From Trileptium ribeirensis (lineage: Eukaryota; Nematoda; Enoplea; Enoplida; Thoracostomopsidae): a stretch of 64,000 bases of DNA. The stretch is from positions 46,941 to 110,940 of the forward strand of contig JASANE010029999.1 of NCBI GenBank assembly GCA_030248225.1, written 5' to 3'. Each line of letters opens with the position of its first letter. Positions within the stretch are counted from its first letter, which is position 1. The notes under the pieces are model-generated. The model worked only from the letters and a program-made list of their open reading frames with translations. It did no database searches and was not told the DNA's origin. Shown piece after piece: positions 1 through 55,297 of this stretch. A program made the position numbers and the translations under genes.

Positions 1-1213
1 GAGCAATTGGGAAAATTTTAAGTAATTTTTAGTCTCAAAAATTTATCCCCGTACCGATCATCCCAACCGACGACTGGCTGATCCCTTAGTCGTGTGACAT
101 ATTAATTTCCACAATTAGCCTCTTGATACATATGTTGGCTTTATTTCTGGGCTGCTTAGAACACATCTATTTCATAGTAAATAATGGTGGGAAAATTCTT
201 GTGTGAAACTACGTCATTAGTTGTTGAACATATGAGTTGGCCCACCTGGTAAGAAGCTACGGACCTCACCCCCTCGGTACTTTCTGGCCCTAATAATTTT
301 ATTAATTCTTGGAATTATTAAAATTAAGAGAGTTTAAAATAATATAAAATTTTAAAATTTGTGTGCAAGGGCTACAGTTTTGATTACCTATCGGGTTTGA
401 GCGTAGGCCCTGGGTGCCTTAACTATTACACTTACATTAGCGTAAATGTAAGTGTATTTCTGCTGGATTTTCCAAAATTTGTTGTGAGTTAGAAATTCGG
501 AGAATTTTATAAAAAAGAATTCTATAATACAAAAATTTAAGTTAAGTTAGAGAGCAAAATTTTAAATTCTTTGAATTTCTAGCTCTTAACTATAGGAATT
601 AGGCTTTACAGAAATTCCTGGGTTTTGAGTCCAGATCAACAGTTTATTTAAACGCTTGCACCGTGAGCTTAGTGCCTCAGTTTGCGCGTACAATCGGTGA
701 ACTAAGTGTTGTTATTCGGTGTGTTTGTATAATCGGAGTAATTTATCGTATATCTTGTATATTCTGATTTTAACGTAAGTGAATGTATGTTTACTTGTTT
801 ATGTGTATGATATATCTCATATTGGGTGTAGTAAATAGTTGACTGGAATAAATTTCGAATACATATTCACATATAGAGATCCGACACCGTGTGGTTTAGT
901 TGTGTCAACTGTGCTACCCCTAAGATCCTTGTCATACTCAGCCCAAGTTAGGACTCACGCGGGCTACAGTCGAGACGACCTCCCACCGTCGAGGACCCGC
1001 TTTCTCGCTCCTAGGATTTGGGAGTTCGCCCTGGGGGAAGGGATAGGCAATACTAAAATTGTAGCGGGCCATTGTATTGGCGTACGTCTACAAGCAATAT
1101 CTAGGTAAGGGTGGGTCGCGCCCCACCATTCGGCCGCCCCTCTCACACAAAAGGTAAAATTACTTTGAATATTTTGTATTCAAGCTATTTTTAGTTGCCG
1201 CAGTCCGAACTCT
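1..1213. other. Non-coding region with LTR-like signals
   Basis: No convincing coding region; the short ORFs show no recognisable family. On the plus strand there is a TATA-like TTTATTTAAA near 644-653, an AATAAA at about 847 followed by GT-rich sequence, and a stretch near 1017-1040 (ATTTGGGAGTTCGCCCTGGG) that resembles an LTR/primer-binding-site junction. A similar stretch occurs near 18,975. This could be a decayed 5' LTR, but no partner LTR was found and no retroelement ORF follows. Confidence 0.25.
427..456. other. Perfect 12-bp hairpin
   Basis: TACACTTACATT (427-438) is the exact reverse complement of 445-456, with a 6-nt loop (AGCGTA). It stands alone in AT-rich DNA and has no visible role; it may be the remnant of a small foldback element. 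Confidence 0.6.
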
Positions 1214-2131
1214 ATTACCAGGAGGAATAATTTGGCATCGAGCGGATATTTTATTTAAGGCATAGCTTGTTTCACACTACGGGGTTGAGTGGTCATGACT
1301 GATGATCAGGTTGTAATAATTATGACGATGCTTGAGGGACCTGGAGACATCTCGCTTTTCAACTCAATTACCAGGAGGAATAATTTGGCATCGAGCGGAT
1401 ATTTTATTTAAGGCATAGCTTGTTTCACACTACGGGGTTGAGTGGTCATGACTGATGATCAGGTTGTAATAATTATGACGATGCTTGAGGGACCTGGAGA
1501 CATCTCGCTTTTCAACTCAATTACCAGGAGGAATAATTTGGCATCGAGCGGATATTTTATTTAAGGCATAGCTTGTTTCACACTACGGGGTTGAGTGGTC
1601 ATGACTGATGATCAGGTTGTAATAATTATGACGATGCTTGAGGGACCTGGAGACATCTCGCTTTTCAACTCAATTACCAGGAGGAATAATTTGGCATCGA
1701 GCGGATATTTTATTTAAGGCATAGCTTGTTTCACACTACGGGGTTGAGTGGTCATGACTGATGATCAGGTTGTAATAATTATGACGATGCTTGAGGGACC
1801 TGGAGACATCTCGCTTTTCAGCTCAATTACCAGGAGGAATAATTTGGCATCGAGCGGATATTTTATTTAAGGCATAGCTTGTTTCACACTACGGGGTTGA
1901 GTGGTCATGACTGATGATCAGGTTGTAATAATTATGACGATGCTTGAGGGACCTGGAGACATCTCGCTTTTCAGCTCAATTACCAGAAGGAATAATTTGG
2001 CATCGAGCGGATATTTTATTTAAGGCATAGCTTGTTTCACACTACGGGGTTGAGTGGTCATGACTGATGATCAGGTTGTAATAATTATGACGATGCTTGA
2101 GGGAACTGGAGACGTCTCGCTTTTCAACTCA
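1214..2131. repeat. Satellite-like tandem array, 6 x 153 bp
   Basis: The string ATTACCAGGAGGAATAATTT recurs at 1214, 1367, 1520, 1673, 1826 and (as ...CCAGAAGG...) 1979, exactly 153 bases apart. Units are almost identical: scattered single changes such as AACTC versus GCTC, GGAGG versus GAAGG in the last unit, and GACATC versus GACGTC near the end. This points to recent expansion or homogenisation. There is no shared ORF, and 153 being a multiple of 3 yields no long frame here. Not recognised as a named satellite. Confidence 0.95.
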
Positions 2132-2357
2132 ATTTTTATCTAAGCTTGATCTGTGTTGTTCTGGCTTTTTGTTTGTTCGCTTCTGTTTCACTGGTTTCGT
2201 GTTATATAGAAGATAAATACGGTCTTATTTATATCGGGTTATTGTATACGATCGATTATTAATTATTTTTTACTGTTATATTACTTTAGTTTTTGACTGT
2301 TGTTGTTATAATGCTTATTGTTTTATTGTTGTGGCTTGTGTGGGTAGCATGTCTTTT
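2132..2357. other. AT-rich spacer after the 153-bp array
   Basis: T-rich sequence between the satellite and the dispersed repeat. No gene, structure or repeat is visible. Confidence 0.5.
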
Positions 2358-15397: not shown

Positions 15398-15605
15398 ACC
15401 TTCATACCGCTAGATACGTGGGCCAATATAGGTGCCTGGCCGAACACCCTGGTAAACCCGCCGGCAGCCTGCTAAGGTAAGCGATTCCCTTAGGTCAACT
15501 CGCGGTTCACCGGGCAGTCGTGGAAGCCGGGGTTGTCCGGGCACCACACCAAGAAAAATGGTGGTGCAGCTGGGATCCCTTAGGGCCAGAACTGGTCCTA
15601 GTACA
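15398..15605. repeat. ~210-bp dispersed repeat, copy 1
   Basis: From ACCTTC.TACC.CTAGATACGT to CTGGTCCTAGTACA this matches 27,697-27,909 in the same orientation at roughly 88-90 percent by eye. Shared blocks include CGAACACCCTGGT, CCGCCGGCAGCCT, GTCGTGGAAGCCGGGGTTGT and GATCCCTTAGGGCCAGAACT. The other copy sits immediately after the Gypsy pol stop codon, so this could be a lone LTR fragment of that family, or an unrelated repeat. A CACCAC..GGTGGTG hairpin is present in both copies. Confidence 0.85.
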
Positions 15606-20117: not shown

Positions 20118-20902
20118 TTAGAAGAGTAGAGTGGCAGCAGAGTTCGATAAGCTGGCATTCAAAAGTTGACGCCCTTTTATTAAAGCCGGAAGATTGACCT
20201 CAGATGGTGGTTTAGGAGTTACATCGGAGTGTCGTAAAGTTATTGCTTCGAGTCTCTGCTCAGCAGCTAATACTTCGTGTGGCTCAAATCCATCAAAATC
20301 AGCTTCAGTGTCTAAATTGTCTTCTTGAACAATGGGATCAGACGGGACTTCAAGTCGATATAAATGATTAATTGGGCGTTTGACAATCATACCATTTGGC
20401 ATTTGCAGCTCCGCGGATCGTATGGTGTCATCTGCAGATCGTAAAAATCGTAGAATCCGGCATAATTTCCATTGACCACGAGGTGCTTCAGTGTTTTTGA
20501 GTAGCACAACTTCGCCGATTGCGGGCGATTCATTGATACTCCCGCGAGGAGTACGATGTGCCGGTTGACTCTTTTCTCTAAGGCTCAAAAGATAGTGGTC
20601 ATACCATTGTCGCCAAACGGCGTTGAGACGGTTTTGTTTAGCTTTCCAGAACCCCAGCAGCGGTTTTGTACAGTCGGATCCGCACTTGGTGTACCGGTCG
20701 AAAGATCGACAAGAAAGTCGATGGGACGTAATGCAACACCGGAGTCCATGTCCCCGTGGACATAGGTGATTGGGCGTGAATTAACAATCGCTTCTGTTTC
20801 GGTGATCAGCGTTATGAACTCGTCCCACCTTAGCAGTCGGCGTCCAATCATCGATCTGAATGTAGATTTAACAATTCCCACTAGACGCTCGTAGAATCCG
20901 CC
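20118..20902 (-). pseudogene. BEL/Pao pol fragment: integrase C-terminus with DUF5641 domain
   Basis: Continues the BEL pol after the stop codon at 20,903. Residues after that stop (GGFYERLVGIVKS) include the integrase catalytic Glu context, then the long helical region (TETEAIVNSRPITY). The last part, from about 20,580 down to 20,330, carries the DUF5641 pattern typical of BEL/Pao: GEVVLLKN, PRGQWKLCRI, RSAELQMPNG and RPINHLYRLEV. DUF5641 is the chromatin/target-side C-terminal domain of this integrase group. A frameshift lies near 20,650, because the WKAKQNRLNAVWRQWYDHYL-type linker is in a different frame from the preceding segment. The copy cannot make a functional integrase. Confidence 0.88.
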
Positions 20903-21590
20903 TTACCATGGCGCTAATTCGGTGGTAAATTTCCAAACGATGTCGTGGTCTGCAATATACGACCGAATTTGCTCATCGGTAACGATTTTATGCCATGTTC
21001 TATCGATTAAGGTTTTGGCCAATCTGAATTGCGGTGCGTTGTCGCTAATGATTTGATGAGGACACCCTCGTCTAGAAACAAAACGGCTCAGACACTCCAT
21101 AAACGATTGAGCAGTGCAGTCGGTAACGCATTCAAGATGAATTGCGCGGGTTGATAGACAGGTGAATAAACAACACCACATCCAATCCCTTCGTGACAAA
21201 TCCGTCAGCGACCTTGACGGTTGCCGGGCCGAAATAATCAAGACCTGCGAATTCGAACGGTTTCGCACGTGTTACTCGTTCTCTGGGCCATGGTGGCATA
21301 TTCGGTAATGCAAATGGAGGCCCTTTGTGCTTCCGACAAACGATGCATTTGGTTATGACACGACGCACCGCGTTGCGACCCTGTGGAATCCAATACGAGC
21401 GGCGTAGTTGACTGAGGGTATGGCTTGCGCCAGCATGGAATAATTGTTGATGAACTTCGACAATAATGTGCTTCGTGATGTGGCTGTCCTTCGGGAGAAG
21501 TATCGGGTTAATAGCGTCAGGATGCAACTCGGCGTTTTGCAATCGGCCACGACAACGAACAACTTGCTTTGAATCCAAATAAAGTCCAAG
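20903..21590 (-). pseudogene. BEL/Pao pol fragment: integrase zinc-binding and core
   Basis: From the minus strand: KQVVRCRGRLQNAEL, then an HHCC zinc-binding region (HQQLFHAG, SQLRRSYWIPQGR, CIVCRKHKG), then the core with its first Asp in the GLDYFGP context (about 21,240) and its second in ISDNAPQF (about 21,030). These words are diagnostic of BEL/Pao integrase. A frameshift lies between about 21,190 and 21,160, splitting VTKGLDVV from LFTCLSTRAIHLECV. A stop codon (TAA, 20,903-20,905) interrupts the core just before the Glu region. Inactive, but only moderately decayed. Confidence 0.9.
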
Positions 21591-22780
21591 TTACTTTACT
21601 GTGTAGTTGGTTTTGTTCGATTTGATCGATGCGATTATTTGTTCAAGCTCAGTCGCCTGGACCGAAATGATCCACAGCGTTTGGGCCACCGCTAAATCGG
21701 CAGCTGTGATATAAATGTCGCTAGATAAAGATGCGAACATATCTGACAGAAAAGGAATCTTAGTTCGAACAGACATATTTGAGCGGCTCCACAAATATGA
21801 TTTGAGGAACTTGAGACATACTGCTGTGATACGAAGGAGCTTCTTGAATGCCGAATACGACGTGATATCAATATGAAACGGCACAAGCTGCACTTCGTCG
21901 CGGAGCCCCTCTCCCGCAAGCAGCGAAATGACAGGGCCAGGGGAACGCTGCAGTTCAGACGCAAACTCCGAATTCGAAATGGGCTCGACGACGTCAGCGG
22001 TAGGCCAGTCTTCACTATCGCTGGAGATCCAAGTTGGCCCATGCCACCAAATGCTTGATGTAGCGAGATTGTCACCCGACAAACCTCGCGTGCACAGGTC
22101 GGCAGGATTTTCTGTAGTTCGAACATGAAGAAATTCAGCTTTTTCGATCTGTTTTATTTCTCTGATGCGATTTGCGACAAAGCGCTGCAGTGGCTTATCA
22201 GTTCGAAGCCAACCTAAGATGCAAGATGAATCAGTGAGAAAATAGCATTTGATGTCATCGGCTGGTATTGTTCGAGTAGACGACCGTACAAATGTGGCAG
22301 CCCGTCCGAGAAGTTCAAGACGAGGTATTGAGAATGGTTGTTTTTGCTCTGGTGCTAAACGAGATTTCGAAAAGATGAGATTTGACGTCCATTTGTCGTC
22401 ATACTTCAACATGCAACGAATGTAAACTGTAGCAGCATATGAGTCCTTTGACGCGTCGGAGAATATAACCAACGTCACCTTAGAAGATTTGTCCAATGGA
22501 TACAACAGAGGCGGCAGTTTGATACTGAAGCAGCTTCGAATATCGGAATGAAGACTCTTCCAAGCATGCTGGAGGTCTTCACTTAGCTCATCGTCCCAAC
22601 CCTGATTATCTTTCCACAGGTTGCGCAAGAAACATTTAGCATTGAGCGTTGACGGCAAAAAGAACCCCAATGGATCGAAGACTGATGCTATCGACTGTAG
22701 AATTTGTCGTTTTGGTTTGCAAGTTCCGCGCTCTTTCCAGTTTCCTCGTAAATGCAGTGTATCGGTATCTGTGTTCCAAG
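21591..22780 (-). pseudogene. BEL/Pao pol fragment: RT tail and RNase H region
   Basis: A 359-aa frame on the minus strand, with homology continuing upstream to about 22,780. It reads SVFDPLGFFLP at the RT-RNase H linker, then the RNase H words FSDASKDSYAA, IPRLELLGRA, LTDSSCILGWLR, and the BEL-specific NPADLCTRGLSG and WWHGPTW. The RT active site, protease and gag are absent. The frame ends in a TAA (21,591-21,593) where the pol reading frame otherwise continues. At its 5' side homology stops where the plus-strand Gypsy/IMPACT frame starts. The missing 5' half is not found beyond the Gypsy element, so this fragment was truncated rather than simply split by an insertion. Confidence 0.92.
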
Positions 22781-24333
22781 TTTATACAGTATTTGATGTG
22801 CGGTGCGTGCTTGAGACGCTAAAAATGAACAAAAAAATTGCCATGGCCACCCATAACATATATGCATTCATCATTTTTTCAAAGGGAACCGTTTTGGATT
22901 CTGATTTTTCGGATGACGGAGAATTCGGGGCCGGTGCTCGCCTGCTTCGCATTCTTCAGTTGTCAAAAACGCAAAATGTCATCATTATTGTTAGTAGATG
23001 GTACGGCGGTGTGCATTTGTGTTCAGACAGATTTCGACACATTAATGCGGTTGCCACACGAATTTTGCAACATTGCAATTTTATACCGCATAAAAAAGAA
23101 CCAGCTTCTTTGAAAACTTCAAGAAATGTCAAGTTTATGCAAGTGGAACAAAATGATCACAACACTAAAGTTAACAATAGGAAACAACAGCACACCGAAA
23201 ATCGGTCTAAAAATAAATATTCGCAAAAATGGAAAGGGCAAACATCCCACAAGGTTCAGAATTGGCAGACAGAGTTCAACCCGATTGAAAACATTGACAC
23301 AAACTCTAAGGACAAAAATATCTTTTTGCAGCCATCAAACTTTCACAACCAACCACATTTTTATGGGTTCAACCAGGCCAACGGAGTGAGGAGTCAATGT
23401 AAAGGATCTTCTGTTGTTTCGTACCAACAAAAATTGCAAAATCATGATATGCTAACTGCACGAAACAGAAGATTACTATGTACATCTCTGATTACACTTC
23501 TGATATTTTTTGGTTGTTTGTGTCTTGCTAATGAAGCTTCCTCGTACACAATTCCTAAAAAAATCAGCTACTCTACAAAAAACTACAGACAACCTATATG
23601 CTCCACGCATAAAAACAGTCAGCATATCAACAGCTTAAGACAATTGCTAATTATAGGGGGGATTGAACCCAACCCTGGACCACCAATTTTTCCCGATTTA
23701 GAAAATCTTGATCGGGAAATACTAACTAAAGCTTTACAATTAATACACGAAGAAGACATGGATTATGCAATACCAGGCACAAAACGATTGATTATAGATT
23801 CTTTGAATCAACAACCACGTCCTGTTGTGAAAATGGCAATTCAAATTGCACAACAACATATACAACAACAGAACGTGGGACCCACTCACACAGTTAATGA
23901 ATCTTTGCCAAAACTTCCGATTTTCTACGAAAAAGATACAAAAGCGTGGTTTACACAAATAGAACCATTACTTGATGGAAAATCTGAACAAATAAAACGA
24001 AATAGTCTTTTGAGTGTGTTACCAACCAATGTTTTAAACGATTGTGGTGTCAAAACTACTGACAACTACAATTCAGTAAAAGAATGTATTCTAAAATTTT
24101 ATGGTCTCAGTCAAGAAAAATTACTCAGAAATTTACTAGCAGAACAAACATTAGGAGACCGAAAACCATCTGTAGCACTTCGGCAACTGCAACGACTTGC
24201 ACCAAACAATTCAGAACTTGTTAAATGGAGATTCCTCGACATTTTACCCGAAAAAGTTCGAATTGCACTTGCAGTTGTCGAAGATATGGAAATTGAAAAA
24301 TTAGCCGATTTAGCTGATAAGATTGTGGAATAA
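22774..24333 (+). pseudogene. IMPACT-like domain + membrane segment + 2A-like motif + Gag N-terminal body (one frame)
   Basis: One uninterrupted frame. (1) 22,774-23,094 resembles the IMPACT/UPF0029 (YigZ) domain: ATHNIYAF (22,846-22,869), SDDGE..AG.RLL (from 22,909), NVIIIVSRWYGGVHL (to 23,022), DRFRHIN. In animals IMPACT binds GCN1 and dampens GCN2 activation; a role here is inference. (2) 23,095-23,470 basic, Asn/Gln/Lys-rich linker. (3) 23,473-23,529 a 19-residue hydrophobic segment preceded by RNRR. (4) LLIIGGIEPNPGP ending at 23,682. (5) Gag-like body to 24,330. No in-frame ATG precedes the domain start; the first is at 22,825, inside it, so the 5' end is probably truncated at the BEL junction. 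A TAA at 24,331-24,333 interrupts gag, while the same frame continues downstream to 24,699. I know of no named Gypsy lineage with this leader. Confidence 0.75.
23641..23682 (+). other. 2A-like ribosome-skipping motif (GIEPNPG/P)
   Basis: The codons give QLLIIGGIEPNPGP, with the would-be skip between Gly (23,677-23,679) and Pro (23,680-23,682). The 2A consensus is D-V/I-E-x-N-P-G-P behind a Leu-rich stretch. Here all positions match except Asp, which is Gly. 2A-like motifs are known in animal non-LTR retrotransposons and in some RNA viruses. Position, just after a hydrophobic segment and just before the Gag body, fits separation of the leader from Gag. Activity cannot be judged from sequence. 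Confidence 0.65.
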
Positions 24334-24699
24334 GTCCTCCCAACCGCATCTGTGCAGGAACAACAATCCACATCTCAATCAACATGCGGAAAGTGTGCAA
24401 GTCAGTGGGATGATTTGGCGTATAGCGTGGCACAGCTAACCAAAACTATGCAAAATTTTCAATCATTTCCGCGAAATCACTCATCCCCTAGAAATAACCC
24501 CGCTAACCGCCCTGAAAAAAGACCTAACAGTTCTAACAGAAGGCGCTCTTTTTCTGGAAATCGCAAATATAATCCGGAAGGCGGTTGGTGCTGGTACCAC
24601 TTTAATTTTGGTGAACTTGCCCACAAATGCAATGAGCCTTGCACATGGTCAAATGATCGCAAACCGCAGCCGGGAAACGCCCCCACTCCACCGAATTAG
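24334..24699 (+). pseudogene. Gypsy gag C-terminal part with CHCC zinc motif
   Basis: Same frame as the upstream gag, after the TAA at 24,331. The chain is basic and Ser/Asn-rich, then has CWYHFNFGELAHKCNEPC (24,589-24,642), spacing C-x2-H-x9-C-x3-C. This CHCC nucleocapsid motif, instead of the usual CCHC, is the known mark of the CsRn1/Kabuki-type Gypsy lineage. The frame ends with TAG at 24,697-24,699. A -1 frameshift signal at 24,672-24,736 lies over its end. The single stop upstream is the only break seen in gag; readthrough cannot be excluded, but a nonsense mutation is simpler. Confidence 0.85.
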
Positions 24700-24736
24700 C
24701 GGCACACGGTGGAGTCAATACTATACAAGTGGCCGC
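24672..24736 (+). promoter_or_regulatory. Programmed -1 frameshift signal, gag to pol
   Basis: Slippery heptamer GGGAAAC at 24,672-24,678, read G GGA AAC in the gag frame. Spacer of 6 nt (24,679-24,684). Perfect 9-bp stem ACTCCACCG (24,685-24,693) with CGGTGGAGT (24,707-24,715). The loop contains the gag TAG stop. GCGGC in the loop (24,699-24,703) can pair with GCCGC at 24,732-24,736 to make an H-type pseudoknot with loops of 5, 3 and 16 nt. A -1 slip here enters exactly the frame of protease-RT. G GGA AAC belongs to the canonical X XXY YYZ class used by retroviruses. Confidence 0.85.
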
Positions 24737-26582
24737 ATCTACTGTTGGAAGTTTCCTTGTTGATAGTGGTGCAACAAAAAGTTTCTTACCAAAATATTTC
24801 GCAAATGACACTAAAAAAACATCCCACAATTTTATTGCAGCCAACGGCACTCCTGTGCAAACTTTTGGTTCCAGGACTTTGTCGTTTCATTTGAATTGTC
24901 TTCAAAAAAACTACACGTGGGATTTCATTATTGGAAATGTAACTAAGCCAATTTTGGGTTTCGATTTTTTGTGCAAAAACAATTTAATGCTCGATTGCAA
25001 AAATCATAAACTAATTCAAAACAAAAACGACGAACGTCTTAATGTCGATTCAACGAAAACAGTAGCACCTTCCACTATAACATTGATAAGTTCAATCACT
25101 GAACGAAACTGTGATAAATCAAATTCATTTATTCAAGATTTGATGAAAAGTTACAATGTGCTGTTTGACCCAATTTCTGTCCAACAAAAAGTCTTACATC
25201 AGGTCGAACATCACATTGTGACAAACGGCGCACCAGTTTTCGCGCGGCCCAGGCGATTGTTTGGGGAAAAGCTGCAAATAGCAAAGGACACATTTTATAA
25301 ACTTGAAAAACAAGGGGTTATGTTTCGAGGTGAATCTCCGTGGGCTACCCCACTACATATGGCCCCAAAAAATGACCCAACCAATCCCTTTAGACCATGC
25401 GGGGACCATAGGGCGTTGAATGCAGTGACTGTCCCCGATCGGTATCCAATGCCAAATTTACACGATATAACAAATAACTTACACCATTGTAAAGTTTTTT
25501 CGAAGTTAGATTTAGTTTCGGCTTATCACCAAATTCCCCTAGCTGAAAAAGACAAACTCAAAACCGCAATAACAACCCCATTCGGCTTATTCATATATCG
25601 CCGCATGCCTTTTGGTTTGCGAAACGCGGCGCAAACTTTCCAACGGTTGATGGACATTGTGTTGCAAGACATTCCACACGCTAAGGCTTACATTGATGAT
25701 ATTTTAATAGCTAGCCCGGATGTCGAGCAACATCAACGTCATTTAAAAACCGTGTTAAAAAAACTAAAAGAGAATGGTTTACACCTAAAGGCCGAAAAAT
25801 GTCAGTTTTTTCAAACAAAAACTAACTTTATAGGCATTGAGTTAAACCAACACGGGTTTCGTCCATTTTCTGAAAAAATTTCAGCAATTTCAAAATATGA
25901 AAAAGCCGAAACCATTAAAGGGATAAAACGATTTCTGGGGATGGCTGGATTTTATCACAGATTTGTACCACATTTTTCCGAAATCGCCGCACCTTTAACT
26001 AATTTAACACGCAATGCTAAACCCAAAACAACCAAACCGGTCGAATGGACCTCAGCTGCTAACGAGGCATTTGAAAAACTTAAAATTGCACTCGAACAGA
26101 GCATAACACTAGCTTTTCCAAGCAAAATAGCTAATTTAGAATTAACTACTGACGCATCCACTGTTGCAGCCGGTGCTGTACTGCATCAAGTTAATCATGA
26201 TAATAAACAACCATTAGCATTTTTCTCTCGAAAATTTACCGACTTAGAAACTAAAAAATCGGCGTTTGATAGAGAGCTATTGGCAATTTATTTAGTACTC
26301 AAACATTTTTCGTGGCTACTGGGCGTGCAGTTTGTAATCAAAACCGATCATAAACCGCTAGTTAATGCAATGCACATGAATACGCCCACACCACAAAAAG
26401 CTGGATGGCTTTCGTATATTTCAGAATTCAGTTGCACTATTGAGCATGTTTCAGGTTCGGAAAACATTGTTGCAGATGCATTATCGCGTTCAATTTCAAC
26501 TATTATGGGACAAAAAGGGTCTGATTGGGAAAACGCTCAAAAACAAGATAGTGAGTTGCAAAAATTTTTCAAAAAAAAATAA
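24678..26582 (+). CDS. pol: Gypsy pol: protease, reverse transcriptase, RNase H
   Basis: Frame -1 to gag; open from about 24,657 and entered by the frameshift at 24,672-24,678, so no own start codon is needed. Protease: [11 protein letters not shown] (about 24,753-24,785) with Asp-Ser-Gly active site and ILGFDFL flap-side motif. [17 protein letters not shown] and catalytic YIDD at 25,689-25,700. RNase H: TTDAST (Asp at 26,151), [23 protein letters not shown] and VADALSRS give the four acidic residues. The protein would assemble with Gag in a cytoplasmic particle and copy the element RNA. All core motifs are intact, with no internal stop over about 620 codons. The frame ends at a TAA (26,580-26,582) right after an A9 run, and integrase follows in another frame. 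Confidence 0.93.
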
Positions 26583-27693
26583 TTTACAAGTAAAGCATTG
26601 GAACCTAGAAAGTAGCGATATAGTATGTGACGGAAGGTCGGCAGCATTTAGACCATATGTCCCATCATGTCTTCGACGTCAAATATTTCATGAAATTCAT
26701 AATCTATCACATCCTGGTCCAAACGCAACTTTACGAACAGTAGCAGAAAAATACGTTTGGCCAGGAATGAATAAAGATGTGAGAAGATGGGCTAAGTGCT
26801 GCAGATTTTGCCAAGCCGCAAAAGTTACACGCCACACGAAAGCCTCAATAGGAACAATTCCTACAAGTGCTCGATTGCACACGATACACATCGATATCGT
26901 AGGACCTTTGCCTCCGTCAGAAGGTTATTCGTATTTGGTTACAATTATTGACCGTTTTACACGCTGGGCCGAGGTAGTTCCAGTTAAGGACATCAGTTCT
27001 GAAACCGTAGCCACCGCATTAATAAGCACTTGGGTAAGTAGGTATGGTGTTCCCCGCATTATCGTTTCAGATCGTGGCACTCAGTTCGAATCAGGACTAT
27101 GGAGCGAGTTGATGCGACAGCTCGGAATACATCGCAAACGCACGACCGCATACCACCCCGCGTGCAATGGAACGATCGAGCGATTCCATCGAACATTAAA
27201 ACAATCATTAAGAGCCCATTGTGATAACAAACAATGGTCTCTGACATTACCACTTATCCTCTTAGGTTTAAGAACAACCATTAATAAAGAAGGTACTAGT
27301 CCTGCAAGTTTGCTTTATGGGACATCTCTTGATCTACCGCATCATTTCTTTATGGAAACAAAACCCGAATACTCTCAAGCCACGCCCGAATTTATATCAA
27401 AATTATTCGGGGCAATTCGAAATTTTAAACCTCCCATTCGGGAATACGCTGGACACAGTTATATTCCAAAAGAACTTAATGTGGCTAAATTCGTTTGGAT
27501 GCTTGACATCTCGCCTAAGACTAGCCTACATCCGCGCTATATAGGGCCATTTGAAGTTCTCGATCGGGACTCCAAGATCGTGACAATTTTAATTAACGAA
27601 AAACCGCAAAAAGTATCTGTTGACAGGGTAAAACCCGCATTTTTGAGGGAATTAGACACTGAGGTACCAGAAAAACAAGCGAATCTCTGGTAA
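26583..27693 (+). pseudogene. Gypsy pol: integrase, separated by a frameshift
   Basis: The frame is open from about 26,440 but true homology starts just after 26,580. Zinc-binding [15 protein letters not shown] with CCRFCQAAK. Core: [10 protein letters not shown] (first Asp), [11 protein letters not shown] (second Asp), and Glu in NGTIERFH exactly 35 residues later (D,D-35-E). The C-terminal region ends [12 protein letters not shown] and [12 protein letters not shown], typical of CsRn1/Kabuki-like integrases. It would insert the cDNA. It is in the +1 frame relative to RNase H; loss of one base from the A9 tract at 26,571-26,579 would join the frames, so a homopolymer indel (mutation or sequencing error) is the likely break. 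The stop is at 27,691-27,693, four bases before the ~210-bp repeat. Confidence 0.92.
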
Positions 27694-27696
27694 AAA

Positions 27697-27909
27697 ACCT
27701 TCGTACCACTAGATACGTGGGCCAAAATAGGGGCCGGGCCGAACACCCTGGTTAACCCGCCGGCAGCCTACTAAGCTAAGCGGTTCCCTTAGGTCATCGC
27801 ATAGATCACCGGGGAGTCGTGGAAGCCGGGGTTGTCCGGGCACCACACACCAAAAAAAAAAACGGTGGTGCAGCTGGGATCCCTTAGGGCCAGAACTGGT
27901 CCTAGTACA
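27697..27909. repeat. ~210-bp dispersed repeat, copy 2 (candidate Gypsy 3' LTR)
   Basis: Same orientation as the copy at 15,398-15,605. It starts almost at the pol stop codon and ends TAGTACA. That position suits a 3' LTR, but a 5' LTR is missing because the element is cut off at 22,774. No TATA box or AATAAA is visible inside, so another class of repeat inserted here is possible. This copy has an A-run (10 A) inside the CACCAC..GGTGGTG hairpin. Confidence 0.8.
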
Positions 27910-29772: not shown

Positions 29773-30667
29773 TGATTTTTTATTTTATTCAAAGAAAATA
29801 GCTGAATGGTTGCATTAAGTATGATATCTAGCAGGGATTGATAAATGGATTTGACACTTTTACATGTTTTTATGCGAATATATACGATTATGGCTAATGA
29901 TTTTTTGTGAATAAAATTTAATACTTGCACTGCCACATCCTGCTTCTAATGTACTTCAATAATTAAAGCAAACAACGAAAATTTGGCGATCCACAGGTCA
30001 CATTTTTTTAATAATCCAAACACTAAAAATTTTACTATGTTGAAACTAGAAATATAATATAAGTTTGTACATTTTATGGCATATCTTATATAAAGCATTA
30101 CATATCTTTCCAGAATCATGCAAATAATGCGCAGATGCCGAATATCACTGATTACCAACTAAAAGATCACCTGAAATTGCCCGATATTGAGTTCGGGATC
30201 GAATTAAAATCTATTTTTGCCTAGCTGCGTTTTTGTATGATTGATTTTAAACCGAGTTGCAAACTGAAGGAGAGAAAATCGTCCAAGATGTATATCTGTC
30301 GACAAATTCGGGAGCAGCGACAAACACTAGCAGAATTACTTATCATTGGCTCGCGGTTGATTACTTTTTGTGATTTGGTAAATAATCTTAGGGAAACGTA
30401 AAGTACGGGGATTGGTTTGATAGGAAGATGTGATAGTTTGAAAATAATGGAGCAATCAGCTCACCAACTCCTGATATTCCTATAATAAAATGATATTCTG
30501 ATTGTACAACTGAGAAATATGACGAATTAAACCAATTGAAGTGAACACTAACTATGCATACAGCTATGACAGTTGAAGCAATTTATAGATATTGGCGTGA
30601 CAATGCGGCTATTATAGTTGCATTTACGTCACGACAGTGGTACTAATTTGCTGATGGCGTAATTGAA
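29773..30667. other. No recognised gene
   Basis: AT-rich. It would contain the upstream region of the candidate exon at 29,772. No clear promoter elements or repeats were recognised. Confidence 0.4.
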
Positions 30668-32104
30668 GTTGCACTACTAACTTGCAAATAGTGTATGTGT
30701 CAATAGCAATTTAGAAGCTGTTTTATATATCTGTTGCAGAACTCTGTACATGGTGTAACGCTAGCAATCAATTTGTACATGGGATCGAGGCTTTGTCAAC
30801 TAGCAGCAGTCACTCCGGCTCCATCAACTTGGGGTTATGAGGCGATGCATGGAACAGAATGTGAATCCTGCGTTAGTTTGGGTTAGCCGCTGATGAAGCC
30901 GGAGTGACAGTTGCACTACTAACTTGCAAATAGTGTATGTGTCAATAGCAATTTAGAAGCTGTTTTATATATCTGTTGCAGAACTCTGTACATGGTGTAA
31001 CGCTAGCAATCAATTTGTACATGGGATCGAGGCTTTGTCAACTAGCAGCAGTCACTCCGGCTCAATCAACTTGGGGGTATGAGGCGATGCATGGAACAGA
31101 ATGTGAATCCTGCGTTAGTTTGGGTTAGCCGCTGATGAAGCCGGAGTGACAGTTGTACTACTAACTTGCAAATAGAGTATATGTCAATAGCAATTTAGAA
31201 GTTGTTTTATATATCTGTTGAAAAATTCTGTGCATGGTGTAACGCCAGAAATGAATTTGTACATGGGATCGAGGCTTTGTCAGCTAGCAGCTGTCACTCC
31301 GGCTCCATCAACTTGGGGTTACGAGGTGATACATGGAACAGAATGTGAATCCTGCGTTAGTTTGGGTTAGCCGCTGACGGAGCCGGAGTGACAGTTGCAC
31401 TACTAACTTGCAAATAGTGTATATGTCAATAGCAATTTAGAAGTTGTTTTATATATCTGTTGGAGAATTCTGTACATGGTGTAACGCCAGAAATGAATTT
31501 GTACATGGGATCGAGGCTTTGTCAGTAGCAGCTGTCACTCCGGCTCCATCAACTTGGGGTTACGAGGTGATACATGGAACAGAATGTGAATCCTGCGTTA
31601 GTTTGGGTTAGCCGCTGACGGAGCCGGAGTGACAGTTGCACTACTAACTTGCAAATAGTGTATATGTCAATAGCAATTTAGAAGTTGTTTTATATATCTG
31701 TTGGAGAATTCTGTACATGGTGTAACGCTAGAAATGAATTTGTACATGGGATCGAGGCTTTGTCAGCTAGCAGCTGTCACTCCGGCTCCATCAACTTGGG
31801 GTTACGAGGTGATACATGGAACAGAATGTGAATCCTGCGTTAGTTTGGGTTAGCCGCTGACGGAGCCGGAGTGACAGTTGCACTACTAACTTGCAAATAG
31901 TGTATATGTCAATAGCAATTTAGAAGTTGATTTATATATATGTTGCGGAATTCTATACATGGTGTAACGCTAGAAATGAATTTGTACTTGGGATCGAGGC
32001 TTTGTCAGCTAGCAGCTGTCATTCCGGCTCAATCAACTTGGGGCTATGAGCCGATGCATGGAATAGAATGTGAATCCTGCGTTACTTTGGATTAGCCGCT
32101 GATA
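30668..32104. repeat. Tandem array, 6 x ~242 bp, units with internal inverted repeat
   Basis: GTTGCACTACTAACTTGCAA (or close) recurs at 30,668, 30,910, 31,152, 31,394, 31,635 and 31,877. Every unit contains GTCACTCCGGCT(C/T)CATCA and, about 80 bases later, its inverse TGATGAAGCCGGAGTGAC (TGACGGAGCC.. in some units). The junction between units lies just after this inverse copy. The first two units are closest to each other; units 3-5 form a second subgroup (GAAGTTG, ACGAGGTGATA). The last is most diverged and loses the inverse repeat. Confidence 0.95.
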
Positions 32105-47300: not shown

Positions 47301-50300
47301 GTAAATGAAGTATAATGGACTGTGTATCTAACTTTAAAAACCGAATGCCAAACCTCAAAATACTCTAAACTACATACTGATGCTGCCATTATCTATTGTT
47401 GTTTAGCACTACCACAAAGGTCACTCAACCATATAACGGTATCTATCATATCGCCGTTTCACTGCAATCTATTCCGGTTTCTATCAGCATCACAAATCCA
47501 AACGCCAACCAAATATAATTATTTCATAGTCAAAAATATAAAGTCGCCGAACATGAAGGTCTTAAAACCAAATATGCGCTTGGCTCCAAAACCTAATTAA
47601 CAGATCCGCATTCTGATCGTATATCATGCTAAGCTAAACAATCACCAGAGGCATAAATTGAGATGAGAGAACACCGTATGTAAGAGAACAAAGAGTTACA
47701 CAATGTGTTGTTGAATGCAGTTATGTAGGTAAAATGGTATTAGCTTTGGGAAATGTATACATATGTATATTTACGCATATATTTATGTATATATAATATA
47801 AATATTAGACATATAGGTACTATATATTATAATACATTCATGTATAATACAAATAGTTGTATATTAGTGTATATATGACATATATGCGTGCTTTGAGACC
47901 ATTTGCTTTGATTTCAACAGAAGATAATACTTAAGAACCTGTTTTCAACCGGTCGGTGCTGTGAATCTCTCTGACCATGTCTATCAGTGGAAGATGTTTA
48001 TGAAATTATGACTGAAAACTGAATACTCAATTGTATTTAACTGTAGTGTAAAATGAAGCTTTTAAAGAATCATATTACAAAATTATAAACAATATATGTG
48101 TTATTTTATTGTCAAATTGTAGACAATAATTATAAGCAAGGTCTGAGCGAGATGTGCAACAACAATTTGACACAAATGATTGTCGAATAAGAAAAATAAA
48201 TAAAATTTAACGGCTAAAATTTCACTTTTATACATGAAGACACACTTCACAGTGATGCTTGACTGTACCTTGCAACATATTTTCGCTATAGGTTAAAACG
48301 ACGTTTTTAAAAAAGCTGAAGGAATAGCTATAAATATTTCGGCTACTATAAATTTTATACAAATAAGATTGAATGAAACGCTATAATAGAAAGGGTCTCA
48401 TTTGTGCAATACCTGAAGTAACCTAAATATCAAAAACACACTCACAGACACTTGCGGTTGCTTATATTATTTTGTGGAGCTCTTAATGGTAGAGATAGTC
48501 TTTGCCTCAGTCTTTGACTGCTTTTAAAGCCAGTAATATTAGAATTAGTGCTATTCTGCAAAATATTTCTTTATGTACGTTCATCTAGTGATATATATAC
48601 AAAATCAGATATGTACAGTCGCGTTAACCGCAATGACTTGGCGAATTCTGTATGCCAAAATGAGATTAACTAGCTGGTTAAATCTAGAGCTCGTGAATCA
48701 AATTTTGTAGAAGAGTATGAAACACGGGTATACTCGTGCGTAGTAAAGGGACCAAATCTGTGTCATTAAATTGCATAATTTTTTGCTGAAAAAGTTTTGT
48801 GCTGACTTGGTGTTTGTTATTTCGTTACCGCGGCACTGGTATGCATGAAATTTTCTGCTTTACTAGATATAACATTTTGCCTGTACCATGCCAGTTTTTA
48901 CGATCTCCACTTAAACAGTTCTTACATTGTGGGTCAAAATATAGGAACGATACCCTTTTGACGCACGTTAAGCGAGGGTTCGAAAAGTACTTCGGGGGTT
49001 TCGATGTGCGTCAAATCCCTTTAAATGTTCGTCAAGCTATGAACACTGATATGAAAATATAATGATATAAAAAGCTGTACACAAACATATCAGGACACAA
49101 ACGCATGTCCTGAATGGTTATTTCACTCATTCATCGCTAGAATCCGTCTGCACTGAAAACTTTGCAAGAGTTCGTGGATTGGGGCCCGTTGGGTCGTTAC
49201 CAGCTATCAAGGAGTTTTGGCAGAGCCCGTGAAACAGGAAGCCTTCCTTCAACCGAGGCTTAGAAATTTATAAATTTTAAAATTTCTGTATTTTTCGGGT
49301 AAGGGGGATAAAATAAGATGTACCGGAAACACTGCCAAAATGTTTCTGACAGAGCGTGAACGCGAATATTAAGTATATTTTACGTAATACATAAATTAGC
49401 TTCAGAACTGCATTTTGGTTAAATTTTGTGTGAACTTGGTGCGTTTTGGGAGAAAACAATTCACCGCCAGAATCGAACCAGGGAATGTCGATATTTCGCC
49501 ATGAGGCAAGGACCAGGGGGGTCACGCGTTCTGAAACAGGGGAACCGAAAAATTACCGAACATCAAACTCCCAATTTGGATAGCGCAGATTTACCACCGT
49601 ATCATATACCCTAAATAAGACACACAAACTGTAACTCTGTTGTCACTAAAAGCAAAATTAGTTTTCACGATGATATTCACACGGTCTAAAATTTTGAGAG
49701 GCACTGAAAATCATTACACGTGGAGCATCCTGGGCGTGACCCCAGAGCTTGTACATTTGTGGGCACATTTGCTATTTCCATTGTAGCAGTGAATCATTAT
49801 CATTCTTTATATATCCTGTACTAGTGAGTGCGAAATATAACGCAGGGCATTACCGTTTTGTTTTTGAGTGGAAAATGACCATTTTGTGATCTGCCATAAG
49901 CTGCTATTCCAAATTCCTTGAAAGTAGAATGTGGGTCAACCCATGATTGCGCAGCGAGTGGTATCGCTGCGAGCGACGGTTATATCCATATAACGTTTGA
50001 ACGGATCGCCCCATCGTAATATCACCATCAAATAACCACCAAAATTGAAAACCTTAATATTCTCAGATTTAACGAATTACAGCGTTTCGCTTCGAAATCC
50101 ACGAAATCAAGCATGTTTCAAAAAGCGTGGGCTAGAGAATTCTATGTGATATATGCCGCAGAATTCCAAACATTTTATATGTGTATCAGGTATTACGTTT
50201 CCAATAGGCAATGAGATTAGAGCACGAATAGGAGCCACCTATGATTCCCTCCTGTTCGAATACCATTGGTTATAGGAGACCTAATACCTAGTACCCCCAT

Positions 50301-52301
50301 AAGATATTGGGACCATATACCCCTGTAATCTTTTGGGGTCAGGCCGAAACAAGACCACATCTCCGGATAGCGGAAACTATATGCGTGTAACTGAATGTCA
50401 TACTCTTCTATAATATTTAATCATAGACTCTTGGTACAATCACAAATCCATGAAAGTTGACTCTGCTGAAAAGTGTTATATTCTTCGGCTTTCCCTTACC
50501 AAGGCCGCGATACGACGCTGTCGTTTAAGCTCTTAGTTCCCCCTCCCACAGGTTTTCGAGCCACTAAATTCAGAGCTCTTCATGTTTTCGAACTAATTTT
50601 CAGACCAATAAATCTTTTTTAATCACTCTTTCAGATCCCTCTAATATTTTTGAACCACTTTTTCAGACCCCCAGATTTTCAACACAACGAATTTTTCAGT
50701 TTTTAGTGGGTCGAAAACTTGGGGGGGCGGGGGTTTAAAAAATGGTTCGAAAATACAGAAAGTTACGAATCTAGTTGGTCAAAAATCCGGACGGTCATAG
50801 ATTGGTGGTTCAAAAGTCTGGTTGGGATATAAGTCAGTGGCTCGAAAACTTGGGTGGTGTGGATGTGGTGGTCTAAGAACATGGGTGGGCTGCATCTTAT
50901 TTTCGACCTACTTGGTCTGTCGAAATCCTGAAAGGTAGGGGGAAGCGACCGAAACCTACCTCGCGCGATAGTAACGGAAAGCTGAAGAGTATCGAACTCT
51001 CCAGCAGAGTAGACTATCATCGGCTCTTGGTACAATCAAGACATTACCTATAACAGCATACATTATGTGTATTAGAATATAGATAAATGACTTACCGATT
51101 TGATCATGCCGCTTGTATTTGTGACTTGTCTAAATATGTTGAAAGATATTTATTGATCATTTTATTGATCAGGCTCTTTTCGTTTACACCATTGAGAATG
51201 CCTAAAATTACAATGCAAATCTAATTCAAACAAATTGAAAAAGAAATACAACCAAAATTAGTTAAAATCATATATAAATATAATTTTACAATTAAAATAC
51301 AGTCCAGGTACAAAGCTCATGTATTTAGTAACTTGTTCGTCTTAAAATATTAATAAGTTATATTGTACGAAAGCGATTGTCATCTGTAAACGTTCACCCT
51401 ACAATTTCAGGTTATAATTTTTCTACTAAAAATTCTAGTCAGGGCAGTCATGTTTTCAGATAATGTCTGGCTTTAAAATATAGAGTTCTTTGAAATGAAT
51501 TTTCTAAATACACACTCTGCGTCGGCGAAATTGCAGCAAACACATGCCCGCATCGCTGGAGTCTGCAGGATCCTAAGTTATCACATAACGATTATTAGTT
51601 AGATTTAATGTTAGCATGCTTATGAAATAAAAATAATTACCCAAAACCATAGTTGATGCTGTAAGCTAAAAGTATAAATGTCAAATTATATTATTCATTT
51701 AAACACCGAACGGCGCGGGAACTAGAATATACCGAAATGCAGCCATATCCTAATTCTACAACACTACGTAGCAGTAACCACCGTGCATGCCAGCAATATA
51801 AAGAATATTAATTCAATATATAAAAATTTAATATATCAAACCAAAAACGCAAGCATGCCCCGCCATATTCGACATGTTATGAAACCTTTTTGGTAGCACT
51901 ATAATAAAAGTTATACTATGTGTAATACAGAAATAATGAAATGTTTATAATTCAGATGAAATCTGAACATTAGACAATCGATTGTTTTTGAGTATAAGAG
52001 AAGTAAGAAAACATCAATAACATGCACAATTTTGCTTTAAAGCTGTGTAGTTGAAATATTTTTTAAATTTCCGAAATTTAGTCATGTATTCAATGAAGCA
52101 GCTACTATGTCAAGGACCGTGTACGGACACACATCTGACAAACATGAAATAAGTAATCACGGCTGATGCCCTTACTAAAAATTTATACTTTGTTGGTATA
52201 TTTATTTTTGTGAAAATTATCTCTATACTAAAATGTCTATATTATATCGGAGCCAACCACATCGAAACTAGCATTCTTGTGTTTTTGACAGACTTTAGGC
52301 T

Positions 52302-52586
52302 GTGGCATTGTCTTCTTATTTGCCCGGTATTGCTGTAAGTTCCACTGTTCCTCATTCACAAGTGATTTATTTTACCAAATGCGACTTCTGGAGTCCAAAA
52401 TCATATCAAGAAACGTGCTCTACAAACGCCTTGGATTTGACTGACGGCATGAAAGGTGACAAAATTCTTTTTCTTCAGGGGCTCTGTTCATTTTATGGCA
52501 CTTTATCCTTAGCAGGAGTTATGGGCTTCCAGGCAGTGCAGTTATATATTGTTCATTTTAACACAAATTATCAAATTACGCGGTAG
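52302..52586 (+). other. 94-aa frame mirrored in the right arm, doubtful
   Basis: An open frame present in both arms (58,990-59,256 on the minus strand). The stretch CSTNALDLTDGMKGDKILFL and a Leu/Val/Gln-rich end are preserved. The arms differ by frameshifts near the start. No family recognised and no start or splice context stands out. Preservation may reflect only the recent duplication. Confidence 0.2.
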
Positions 52587-52748
52587 TTACTGTGGTATAC
52601 GACAGAAAATTACGAGGTGCATCTATTTCGCAACATTCGCAAATTTTCAACTTTAGGGGTTTTATTTAGGGCTCAAAAAATTTCAACGACATTTTGTGTC
52701 GTTCTTTTTCGGTATAAAGTATAATTAATCTATAACCTAACAGAAAAT

Positions 52749-53582
52749 TAAAATTATAGATTTATAGAGCTGGAAGCGGTATAGGTTGACCCGCGGAGCA
52801 CCACCATCACCCGGAGAGGGGTGGCGGATTGTAACCGTGATTGACAGCGCCGTTTCGTATTCCACGCTGGTAATACATGAGGTAAGCTAAAATTATAGAT
52901 TTATAGAGCTGGAAGCGGTATAGGTTGACCCGCGGAGCACCACCATCACCCGGAGAGGGGTGGCGGATTGTAGCCGTGATTGACAGCGCCGTTTCGTATT
53001 CCACGCTGGTAATACATGAGGTAAGCTAAAATTATAGATTTATAGAGCTGGAAGCGGTATAGGTTGACCCGCGGAGCACCACCATCACCCGGAGAGGGGT
53101 GGCGGATTGTAGCCGTGATTGACAGCGCCGTTTCGTATTCCACGCTGGTAATACATGAGGTAAGCTAAAATTATAGATTTATAGAGCTGGAAGCGGTATA
53201 GGTTGACCCGCGGAGCACCACCATCACCCGGAGAGGGGCGGCGGATTGTAGCCGTGATTGACAGCGCCGTTTCGTATTCCACGCTGGTAATACATGAGGT
53301 AAGCTAAAATTATAGATTTATAGAGCTGGAAGCGGTATAGGTTGACCCGCGGAGCACCACCATCACCCGGAGAGGGGTGGCGGATTGTAGCCGTGATTGA
53401 CAGCGCCGTTTCGTATTCCACGCTGGTAATACATGAGGTAAGCTAAAATTATAGATTTATAGAGCTGGAAGCGGTATAGGTTGACCCGCGGAGCACCACC
53501 ATCACCCGGAGAGGGGTGGCGGATTGTAGCCGCGATTGACAGCGCCGTTTCGTATTCCACGCTGTTAATACGTGAGGTAAGC
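52749..53582. repeat. Tandem array, 6 x 139 bp (left arm)
   Basis: TAAAATTATAGATTTATAGA recurs at 52,749, 52,888, 53,027, 53,166, 53,305 and 53,444; six units fill 834 bp exactly. Units are nearly identical. Private changes: GTAACC in unit 1, GGGCGG in unit 4, and GCCGCG plus GTTAATACGTG in unit 6. Each unit gives the same 65-aa minus-strand frame, an artefact of repetition. Confidence 0.97.
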
Positions 53583-54381: not shown

Positions 54382-54452
54382 GCCTGATAGCTCAATGATT
54401 GAGCTATTGATTAATACGTAACTGATTCTTGGTTCGAGCCCGAGTCAGAACT
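54382..54452 (+). repeat. tRNA-like SINE head or tRNA pseudogene, left arm
   Basis: A-box-like GATAGCTCAATGATTGAG and B-box GGTTCGAGCCC at 54,431-54,441 have tRNA-like spacing. Acceptor pairing is poor (only CTGA/TCAG). Mirrored at 57,131-57,190, where 8 bases around the B-box are missing. Confidence 0.5.
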
Positions 54453-55226: not shown

Positions 55227-55297
55227 GGGTCCGTGGTGTATGGTTAACACGCTGCGGCGTACGCGTAAGGCCTGATGTACGATTCCCGGCGGAACCC
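55227..55297 (+). repeat. tRNA-like segment 2, left arm
   Basis: 71 bp from GGGTCCGTGGTGTATGGTTA (A-box-like TGGTGTATGG) to ACGATTCCCGGCGGAACCC (B-box-like, acceptor end). The ends pair partly (GGGT with ACCC). Mirrored at 56,306-56,372 with small indels. The loop sequence is not typical, so a tRNA-derived repeat is more likely than a working tRNA gene. Confidence 0.5.

What the first reader, a model, noticed from the sequence alone, without database searches (positions are those of the whole stretch)
22774..24333. IMPACT-like domain, membrane segment and 2A-like motif fused upstream of a Gypsy Gag
Seen: one continuous frame links an IMPACT/UPF0029-like domain (DDGE..AG.RLL, SRWYGG, DRFRHIN), a basic linker, a 19-residue hydrophobic segment, an NPGP motif and Gag. 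Known: IMPACT binds GCN1 and limits GCN2 signalling, and 2A motifs cause ribosome skipping. Inference: the element may have captured a host stress-response regulator as a separately released, membrane-targeted leader, perhaps keeping translation going while the element is expressed. I do not know a named element with this layout. The alternative is a chance join of a decayed host or LINE fragment to gag, but the open frame over about 500 codons argues against long-standing decay.
Basis: partly seen in the sequence, partly recalled or inferred. Interest (0 to 1): 0.88.

Follow-up and report, generated by a model that had tools for sequence, protein, structure and literature searches.

The report
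Retrotransposon family carrying captured IMPACT gene
A family of Gypsy retrotransposons in this eukaryotic genome encodes an IMPACT domain, most likely taken from a host gene, between two 2A-like motifs ahead of its Gag, so that it is probably released as a separate membrane-anchored helper protein whose job in the element's life cycle is still unknown.

Summary
PF01205 matches the window frame at E 2.1e-21. The window copy (22779-27696) is a decayed fragment, cut by a BEL/Pao piece on the left and an unrelated repeat on the right. The window's own genome (687 Mb) holds 101 PF01205 matches (93 loci). All 20 loci that I fetched (of the 21 strongest matches) carry Gypsy gag directly downstream; 11 of 20 show an LTR pair, two of them 100% identical. 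The complete layout is LTR - leader - 2A#1 - IMPACT 'ancient' domain - basic linker - hydrophobic segment - 2A#2 - Gag - PR-RT-RH-IN-PWWP - LTR. Four sister elements without IMPACT have leader - one 2A - Gag, so an IMPACT+2A cassette appears to have been inserted. The IMPACT domain is almost as conserved as Gag (56% against 62%); the linker is not (16%). Best reading: a 2A-punctuated polyprotein releases IMPACT as its own cytosol-facing membrane protein, perhaps acting on the element's ribosomes or RNA. Two other protein types (LINE-ORF1-like; a Gypsy pol) also carry the domain. My searches showed no published element with this layout.

The parts
22779..27696 (+). Fragment of the Gypsy element (lacks 5' LTR, leader, 2A#1 and domain start; lacks PWWP and 3' LTR)
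   Evidence: 98.9% nt identity to full-length copy L055 (BLAST match window 22779-27700); boundaries read from both sequences
22779..23064 (+). IMPACT/UPF0029 'ancient' domain, N-terminal ~12 residues missing
   Evidence: PF01205 E 2.1e-21, frame residues 55-153; 6bqi; alignment with 18 own-genome copies
23065..23472 (+). Basic linker (18 K/R, 9 D/E in the 120 residues counted)
   Evidence: open frame non-random
23473..23529 (+). Predicted transmembrane segment LLCTSLITLLIFFGCLCLA
   Evidence: Kyte-Doolittle 2.52 over 19 residues; a segment at the equivalent place in 8 of 8 relatives (of 12 examined) whose open frame reaches it
23659..23682 (+). 2A/StopGo octapeptide GIEPNPGP (2A#2); predicted skip between G and P (23679/23680)
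   Evidence: sequence; same motif before Gag in 19 of 20 own-genome loci
23680..24333 (+). Gag capsid region, interrupted by an in-frame stop at 24331-24333
   Evidence: 73% and 75% identity to Gag of L033 and L036; weak DUF7041, below its cut-off
24334..24699 (+). Gag nucleocapsid region with a zinc-binding motif (read by eye; no Pfam match)
   Evidence: same frame as 22606-24333; no Pfam match
24657..26582 (+). pol: protease, reverse transcriptase, RNase H
   Evidence: PF08284 2.7e-5, PF00078 7.4e-35, PF17919 2e-25
26380..27693 (+). pol: integrase (H2C2, rve), cut off before the PWWP domain of its relatives
   Evidence: PF17921 2e-18, PF00665 6.3e-15; no PWWP match in the 3.7 kb from 27301
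20118..22778 (-). BEL/Pao pol remnant that borders the element fragment on the left (flank, not part of it)
   Evidence: PF05380 3.4e-41, PF17921 2.9e-12, PF18701 2.5e-13

Best explanation
The window holds a truncated, decayed copy of a Gypsy LTR retrotransposon family whose reading frame runs leader - 2A-like motif - IMPACT 'ancient' domain - basic linker - hydrophobic segment - second 2A-like motif - Gag, so the IMPACT segment is likely released by ribosome skipping as its own protein and predicted to sit in a membrane with the IMPACT domain facing the cytosol. Steps: (1) shown: in most copies with a readable 5' end the open frame has ATGs inside the 5' LTR and reads through the primer binding site into a leader with one to three hydrophobic segments; that translation starts there is inferred; (2) predicted: skipping at 2A#1 frees the leader; (3) predicted: skipping at 2A#2 frees the ~300-350-residue IMPACT protein, anchored near its C-terminus, and lets Gag (and Pol, usually in another frame) start free in the cytosol beside the membrane; (4) inferred, least certain: the IMPACT domain and basic linker hold or tune the element's ribosomes or RNA at that membrane, using the domain's ancient, non-GCN1 activity. 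I put step 4 at about 0.35. The score below is for steps 1-3.
For: Family: 101 PF01205 matches (93 loci) in the own genome. Gag downstream in 20 of 20 fetched loci, which are 20 of the 21 strongest matches. Of 150 scored gag hits (of 1,005 candidates), an IMPACT hit lies within 3 kb upstream on the same strand in 32 of 36 with >=60% identity, 19 of 27 with 50-59%, 5 of 26 with 45-49%, 2 of 61 below 45%. LTR pairs in 11 of 20 loci, 100% identical over 531 bp (L039) and 450 bp (L051); PBS-like site after the 5' LTR in 10 of 11 (two with a base variant); G-rich tract before the 3' LTR in 9 of 11. 2A#1 in 18 of 20, 2A#2 in 19 of 20. Both fit the assayed core (D/G/C/N)(V/I)ExNPGP and, by eye, the 'LLLLSG-like' upstream class (PMC12846837 passages); GxExNPGP works in DHAV-1 (PMC6249498 passages). 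Continuous frames of 887, 1012 and 921 aa run from inside the LTR through both 2As and Gag in L045, L040, L051. Constraint: IMPACT 56% mean identity, Gag 62%, linker 16%, N-module 29%; omega 0.06 for L033/L036 at dS 1.08; 42 of 46 strongly conserved columns equal both host IMPACT rows.
Against: No expression, skipping or localisation data. Many of the genome's copies have stops or frame breaks. Only 3 of 171 IMPACT pairs and 0 of 45 gag pairs have a usable dS, so omega rests on three pairs. TM calls are hydropathy only. For step 4: in Yih1 the regions sufficient for ribosome and GCN1 binding were mapped to a stretch that includes the linker between the two domains, not to the ancient domain alone (PMC4503747 passages), and no partner of the ancient domain is known. 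No copy with this layout was found outside this genome, in searches of limited reach. 36 of 93 IMPACT loci have no gag among the 150 scored (4 of these 36 were fetched and do have gag).
Confidence: 0.82

Rival explanations
1. Stress-response antagonist: the IMPACT segment acts as a decoy that keeps GCN1 from activating GCN2, protecting translation of the element; a sharper form is that it cancels a GCN1 signal raised by ribosomes pausing at the element's own two 2A sites.
For: Host IMPACT impairs GCN2 activation with less GCN1-GCN2 interaction and associates with translating ribosomes (PMC7140605 passages). The domain keeps 42 of 46 conserved columns of host IMPACT.
Against: The mapped GCN1-binding residues (RWD helix H3) lie in a domain that is absent from the element. 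Bacterial YigZ shares the ancient domain's motifs (PMC4503747) but bacteria have no GCN1 (general knowledge), so the conserved activity is unlikely to be GCN1 binding.
Confidence: 0.15
2. The 2As are inactive or leaky and the IMPACT segment works as an N-terminal extension of Gag, placing particles at a membrane.
For: Continuous frame into Gag in at least six loci (L033, L039, L040, L041, L045, L051); N-terminal 2As that also act as signal sequences when they do not separate are known in sea urchin proteins (PMC4981915 passages).
Against: The octapeptides are preserved at both sites in nearly all fetched loci while linkers drift to 16% identity.
Confidence: 0.1
3. The IMPACT domain is a passenger: a one-time read-through or retrocopy join kept only because it stays in frame.
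For: Some copies carry stops or breaks inside the domain (stops column; L055).
Against: Domain conserved about as well as Gag across copies with saturated dS; omega 0.06-0.28 in the three usable pairs; the 14 Gag rows of IMPACT elements form one side of a branch with support 99/99.
Confidence: 0.04
4. Chance join of a decayed host or LINE fragment to gag in the window only.
For: The window copy is indeed truncated and abuts a BEL piece.
Against: L055 and 20 other loci have the same order, 12 of these 21 with LTR pairs.
Confidence: 0.01

Closest known systems
Ty3/Gypsy LTR retrotransposons with DUF7041-like Gag (CsRn1-like; clade label recalled, not tested)
   Same: LTRs, PBS-like site, G-rich tract, Gag, PR-RT-RH-IN order
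   Different: Frame with ATGs inside the LTR that reads through the PBS; leader, IMPACT and two 2A sites precede Gag; PWWP instead of a chromodomain at the end of integrase
IMPACT / Yih1 (host GCN2 regulator)
   Same: Ancient domain with the same core residues; sequence and fold match to 6bqi
   Different: No RWD; followed by a basic linker and a predicted TM; flanked by 2A motifs; element-borne and multicopy
2A/StopGo polyproteins of picornaviruses, and 2A in APE-type non-LTR retrotransposons (Odon 2013, seen only as a reference-list entry of PMC12846837; not held)
   Same: Core octapeptide and LLLL-type upstream sequence
   Different: LTR (Gypsy) element; two 2As that delimit a captured host domain
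P0027 (Gypsy polyprotein, 1353 aa, unnamed source, contig of 4,505 bases)
   Same: Related pol (54% identity over 75% of the query) and carries PF01205 (1.8e-25) and PWWP (2.5e-11)
   Different: IMPACT lies between protease and RT; no NPGP motif in its printed sequence
P0004 and P0005 (421 and 418 aa, unnamed sources; look like LINE ORF1p by eye, but Pfam gives no ORF1 match)
   Same: PF01205 at 1.4e-25 and 6.5e-23
   Different: IMPACT at the C-terminus of a coiled-coil-like protein; they pair apart from the rest in the tree (93/91)

Membership tests
Ty3/Gypsy LTR retrotransposon | gag then PR-RT-RNaseH-IN in pol | tested here: met
Ty3/Gypsy LTR retrotransposon | Paired LTRs with PBS, PPT and target duplication | tested here: met
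   11 of 20 relatives have LTR pairs (L041's only 129 bp at 87%), 10 of these 11 a PBS-like and 9 of 11 a PPT-like site; 4-5 bp duplications read by eye at L039, L047, L051 and L055, not at every pair. Absent at the truncated window copy.
IMPACT/Yih1 protein | UPF0029 ancient domain | tested here: met
IMPACT/Yih1 protein | N-terminal RWD domain (GCN1 binding) | tested here: not met
   no PF05773 match in the window frame or in 7 own-genome frames that carry the domain; so it is not filed as an IMPACT protein, only as carrying its ancient domain
2A/StopGo | (D/G/C/N)(V/I)ExNPGP core | tested here: met
   window GIEPNPGP; 2A#1 in 18 of 20 (L046 with F at the second place), 2A#2 in 19 of 20 (N changed to H in L034 and S in L044) (core from PMC12846837)
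2A/StopGo | Ribosome skipping activity | not testable with these tools
   needs in vitro translation
Chromovirus (Gypsy with chromodomain) | Chromodomain at the integrase C-terminus | tested here: not met
   PWWP (PF00855 1.9e-9) and no chromodomain match in L055 pol
CsRn1 clade | CHCC-type Gag zinc motif and tRNA-Trp PBS (both recalled) | not tested
   C-x2-H-x9-C-x3-C read by eye in the window; no named reference sequences or RT tree used

The most novel reading that the evidence does not exclude
Retrotransposons have repeatedly recruited the IMPACT ancient domain as a translation accessory: this Gypsy family makes it from between two StopGo sites as a membrane-anchored antidote that quiets collision or GCN1-type signalling raised by the element's own programmed ribosome pauses, and LINE-like ORF1 and a Gypsy pol reached the same solution by fusion. 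The elements would then reveal the unknown ancient-domain activity.
Probability: 0.15. Interest if true: 0.96.

Novelty: new variant of a known kind. Interest (0 to 1): 0.87.

Why it matters
An LTR retrotransposon that makes a picornavirus-like, 2A-punctuated polyprotein and would use it to express a captured host translation-regulator domain is, as far as my listings show (open papers only), undescribed. [quoted passage not shown] It also shows how a StopGo slot could let a mobile element add new proteins ahead of Gag.

Tried and rejected
Rejected: the ~210-bp repeat pair 15398-15605 / 27697-27909 as the element's LTRs. The near-identical copy L055 has other LTRs (558 bp), and the window fragment ends at 27696 before PWWP. 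Rejected: origin of the window domain from LINE-ORF1-like IMPACT; that pair branches apart, and the window domain is nearer to host IMPACT and to other own-genome copies. Not resolved: whether the host gene of this very species was the donor. The IMPACT tree has 14 of 21 inner branches open. The own-genome search for RWD (PF05773) did not complete. The P0003 search matched only residues 159 and up, which does not show that the host gene is missing, since exons are matched singly and only 120 candidates were scored. Led nowhere: viral-contig scans with P0001 and pol (none); with the IMPACT alignment one bacterial phage-like contig with a stand-alone UPF0029-like protein; the genome-contig scan gave 24 loci of other Gypsy elements in MAGs, none with IMPACT by profile or a [DGNES]xExNPGP motif. 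The organism was not identified. Rows dropped: L048 from the gag alignment because its frame has stops; IMPACT stretches under 85 residues and gag under 180 from dN/dS, leaving 19 and 10 rows; gag rows under 120 residues from the gag tree; L041 from the LTR-start table because no PBS stood after its repeat.
Full report
What is in the window. The frame 22606-24333 is open for 575 codons. Residues 55-153 match UPF0029/PF01205 at E 2.1e-21. Yeast Yih1 matches by sequence (6bqi, E 2.5e-16) and by fold (E 4.9e-6, TM 0.46; YigZ 1vi7 at E 0.035, probability 1.0), from a model that is fair over the domain only and best of five by a wide margin. A basic linker, one hydrophobic segment, GIEPNPGP and a Gag follow, then PR, RT, RNase H and integrase. 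The upstream part of the open frame is antisense to a BEL/Pao pol remnant (PF05380 3.4e-41) and is not part of the feature.

The window copy is a fragment. The own genome (G000, 687 Mb, 20,229 contigs; window at C19727:46941-110940) holds a second copy at C6486 (L055) that is 98.9% identical over window 22779-27700. L055 continues on both sides: 5' LTR, leader, 2A#1 and the start of the domain on the left; PWWP and 3' LTR on the right. Its LTRs are 98.4% identical over 561 aligned positions. In the window the match begins at 22779 and ends at 27696. Both copies are decayed: the window has an in-frame stop in gag and a frame break in pol; L055 has a frame break in the domain.

The family. PF01205 matches the own genome 101 times, all over the curated cut-off, at 93 loci after merging neighbouring pieces. 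I fetched the surroundings of 20 of the 21 strongest matches (L033-L052). All 20 have Gypsy gag downstream on the same strand. PWWP follows in 10 of 20 at E <= 1e-4 (an eleventh hit, in L043, lies upstream). LTR pairs were found in 11 of 20, from 87% (129 bp, L041) to 100% (531 bp in L039, 450 bp in L051); 10 of the 11 have TGGTGAACCC or a one-base variant after the 5' LTR, and 9 of 11 a G-rich tract before the 3' LTR. Of the ten pairs other than L041, plus L055, 10 of 11 showed the PBS pattern of my script; in 9 of these 10 the frame that reads through it (as GEP) has an ATG inside the LTR, and in 5 of the 9 it runs on to the IMPACT domain.

Two 2A sites. Upstream of the domain stands a D-type motif (typically RLLLLVAGDVExNPGP) in 18 of 20 loci (not found in L044 and L050). 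Upstream of Gag stands a G-type motif (LRxLLIIGGIExNPGP) in 19 of 20 (not found in L038). Both fit the core (D/G/C/N)(V/I)ExNPGP supported by counts and assays on viral sequences, in which G at the first place is as prevalent as D, and the upstream residues resemble the LLLLSG-like class of that paper (PMC12846837, passages). GxExNPGP separates proteins in DHAV-1 (PMC6249498, passages). Leaders that are both signal sequence and 2A are known from sea urchin (PMC4981915, passages). Skipping itself was not tested here.

Is it a family trait? I searched the own genome with the window's Gag; 150 of 1,005 candidates were scored. An IMPACT match lies within 3 kb upstream on the same strand for 32 of 36 hits at >=60% identity, 19 of 27 at 50-59%, 5 of 26 at 45-49% and 2 of 61 below 45%. 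57 of 93 IMPACT loci have a listed gag downstream; four of the other 36 were among those fetched, and they have gag too. Of the 92 gag hits without IMPACT I fetched four, not chosen at random (L056-L059): all four have an open frame with a leader, one D-type 2A and then Gag. In a Gag tree of 21 rows the 14 IMPACT rows form one side of a branch with support 99/99, in 100% of 200 bootstrap trees; the tool warns of long branches among the other rows, and the four non-IMPACT own rows do not form one group. I infer that leader-2A-Gag came first, and that an IMPACT-linker-TM-2A cassette was inserted between the leader's 2A and Gag.

Constraint. Mean pairwise protein identity is 56% for IMPACT (7 rows), 62% for Gag (7), 16% for linker plus TM (7) and 29% for the N-module (3). 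dS is usable for 3 of 171 IMPACT pairs, which give omega 0.06, 0.26 and 0.28, and for 0 of 45 gag pairs. Of 46 columns conserved at >=85% in 19 own-genome domains, 42 equal both host IMPACT rows (P0002 cockroach, P0003 oyster). So the domain was most likely taken from a host IMPACT gene and kept for its core residues. The tree cannot say which host: P0002/P0003 fall among the element rows with most forks open.

How it likely works. From the anatomy: an mRNA starting in the LTR would be read into a leader with hydrophobic segments, skip at 2A#1, make the IMPACT protein, skip at 2A#2, and continue with Gag. Pol lies in another frame in L033, L039, L041, L045, L051 and the window, which suggests a frameshift; in L040 gag runs on into protease in frame. 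A hydrophobic segment ends about 49-60 residues before the 2A#2 skip site in the relatives whose frame spans both and in the window, after a mostly basic linker. By the positive-inside rule (general knowledge) the IMPACT domain and linker would face the cytosol. What it does there is inferred. In Yih1 the GCN1 contact and the Gcn2-inhibiting activity are in the RWD domain; the ancient domain's function and partners are described as elusive (PMC4503747 and PMC7140605, passages). RWD is absent from the frames tested, so the GCN2 idea is a rival at 0.15. Because the core motifs shared with bacterial YigZ are the ones kept, I favour a direct action on ribosomes or RNA, near the membrane where Gag would assemble (0.35). 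Against this, the stretch of Yih1 that suffices for ribosome binding was mapped around the linker and not to the ancient domain alone (PMC4503747 passages).

Recurrence. In the pol search (4,577 hits at E <= 1e-30, best 120 listed) one listed protein carries PF01205: P0027, from an unnamed source, contig of 4,505 bases, with the domain between protease and RT. Two proteins of unnamed source that look to me like LINE ORF1p (recalled resemblance; no Pfam ORF1 match) carry it at their C-terminus (P0004, P0005). Three kinds of placement in retroelement-like proteins suggest repeated recruitment, but the IMPACT tree is too weak to count events.

Literature, seen as listings of titles and abstract starts unless passages are named: UPF0029 with retrotransposon (0 papers); IMPACT/GCN2 with transposons (20 of 27 listed); 2A with retrotransposons (20 of 47; 6 of 6; 15 of 158); UPF0029 with ORF1/non-LTR (0); a wider set (10 of 3,167, none of the ten with an IMPACT term). 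No listed paper describes an element of this layout. The library holds only open papers, and Repbase-type entries cannot be searched here.

Verdict. A real, multicopy, apparently recently active family (identical LTRs in two of 20 loci).

Noticed in passing
L033, L034, L035, L037, L039, L045, L047, L048, L050, L051, L055; P0010-P0014, P0018, P0019, P0027: A PWWP domain at the C-terminus of integrase in this Gypsy clade (8 of 120 listed proteins), where chromoviruses have a chromodomain; it might steer integration to marked chromatin. No report of it among the 15 of 137 and 10 of 22 papers listed.
   Followed up: partly
L034, L037, L039, L040, L045, L047, L048, L051, L055 (5' LTR ends): The frame through the primer binding site, which it reads as GEP, has an ATG inside the 5' LTR.
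   Followed up: partly
L056-L059: Sister Gypsy elements without IMPACT also have a leader and a single 2A directly before Gag.
   Followed up: partly
P0004, P0005: Proteins of unnamed source resembling LINE ORF1p with a C-terminal IMPACT domain.
   Followed up: partly
window 20118-22778 (-): BEL/Pao pol remnant that ends abruptly at the junction with the IMPACT fragment.
   Followed up: partly
window 15398-15605 and 27697-27909: A ~210-bp G+C-rich direct repeat, 89% identical, 12.3 kb apart; the second copy abuts the end of the Gypsy fragment. Possibly a SINE-like repeat.
   Followed up: no
window 47644-64000: A very large palindrome: 17 pairs of inverted-repeat arms, 87-100% complementary, centred near 55.8 kb.
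   Followed up: no
window 1055-2272, 30559-32067, 52610-53604: Tandem arrays with periods of about 153, 242 and 139 bp.
   Followed up: no
L060:1-369: A 122-aa stand-alone UPF0029-like protein on a bacterial phage-like contig with a terminase-like gene (both by eye).
   Followed up: no
L001-L024: Contigs of bacterial and archaeal MAGs that encode Gypsy-like pol, likely eukaryotic contamination of reference MAGs.
   Followed up: no
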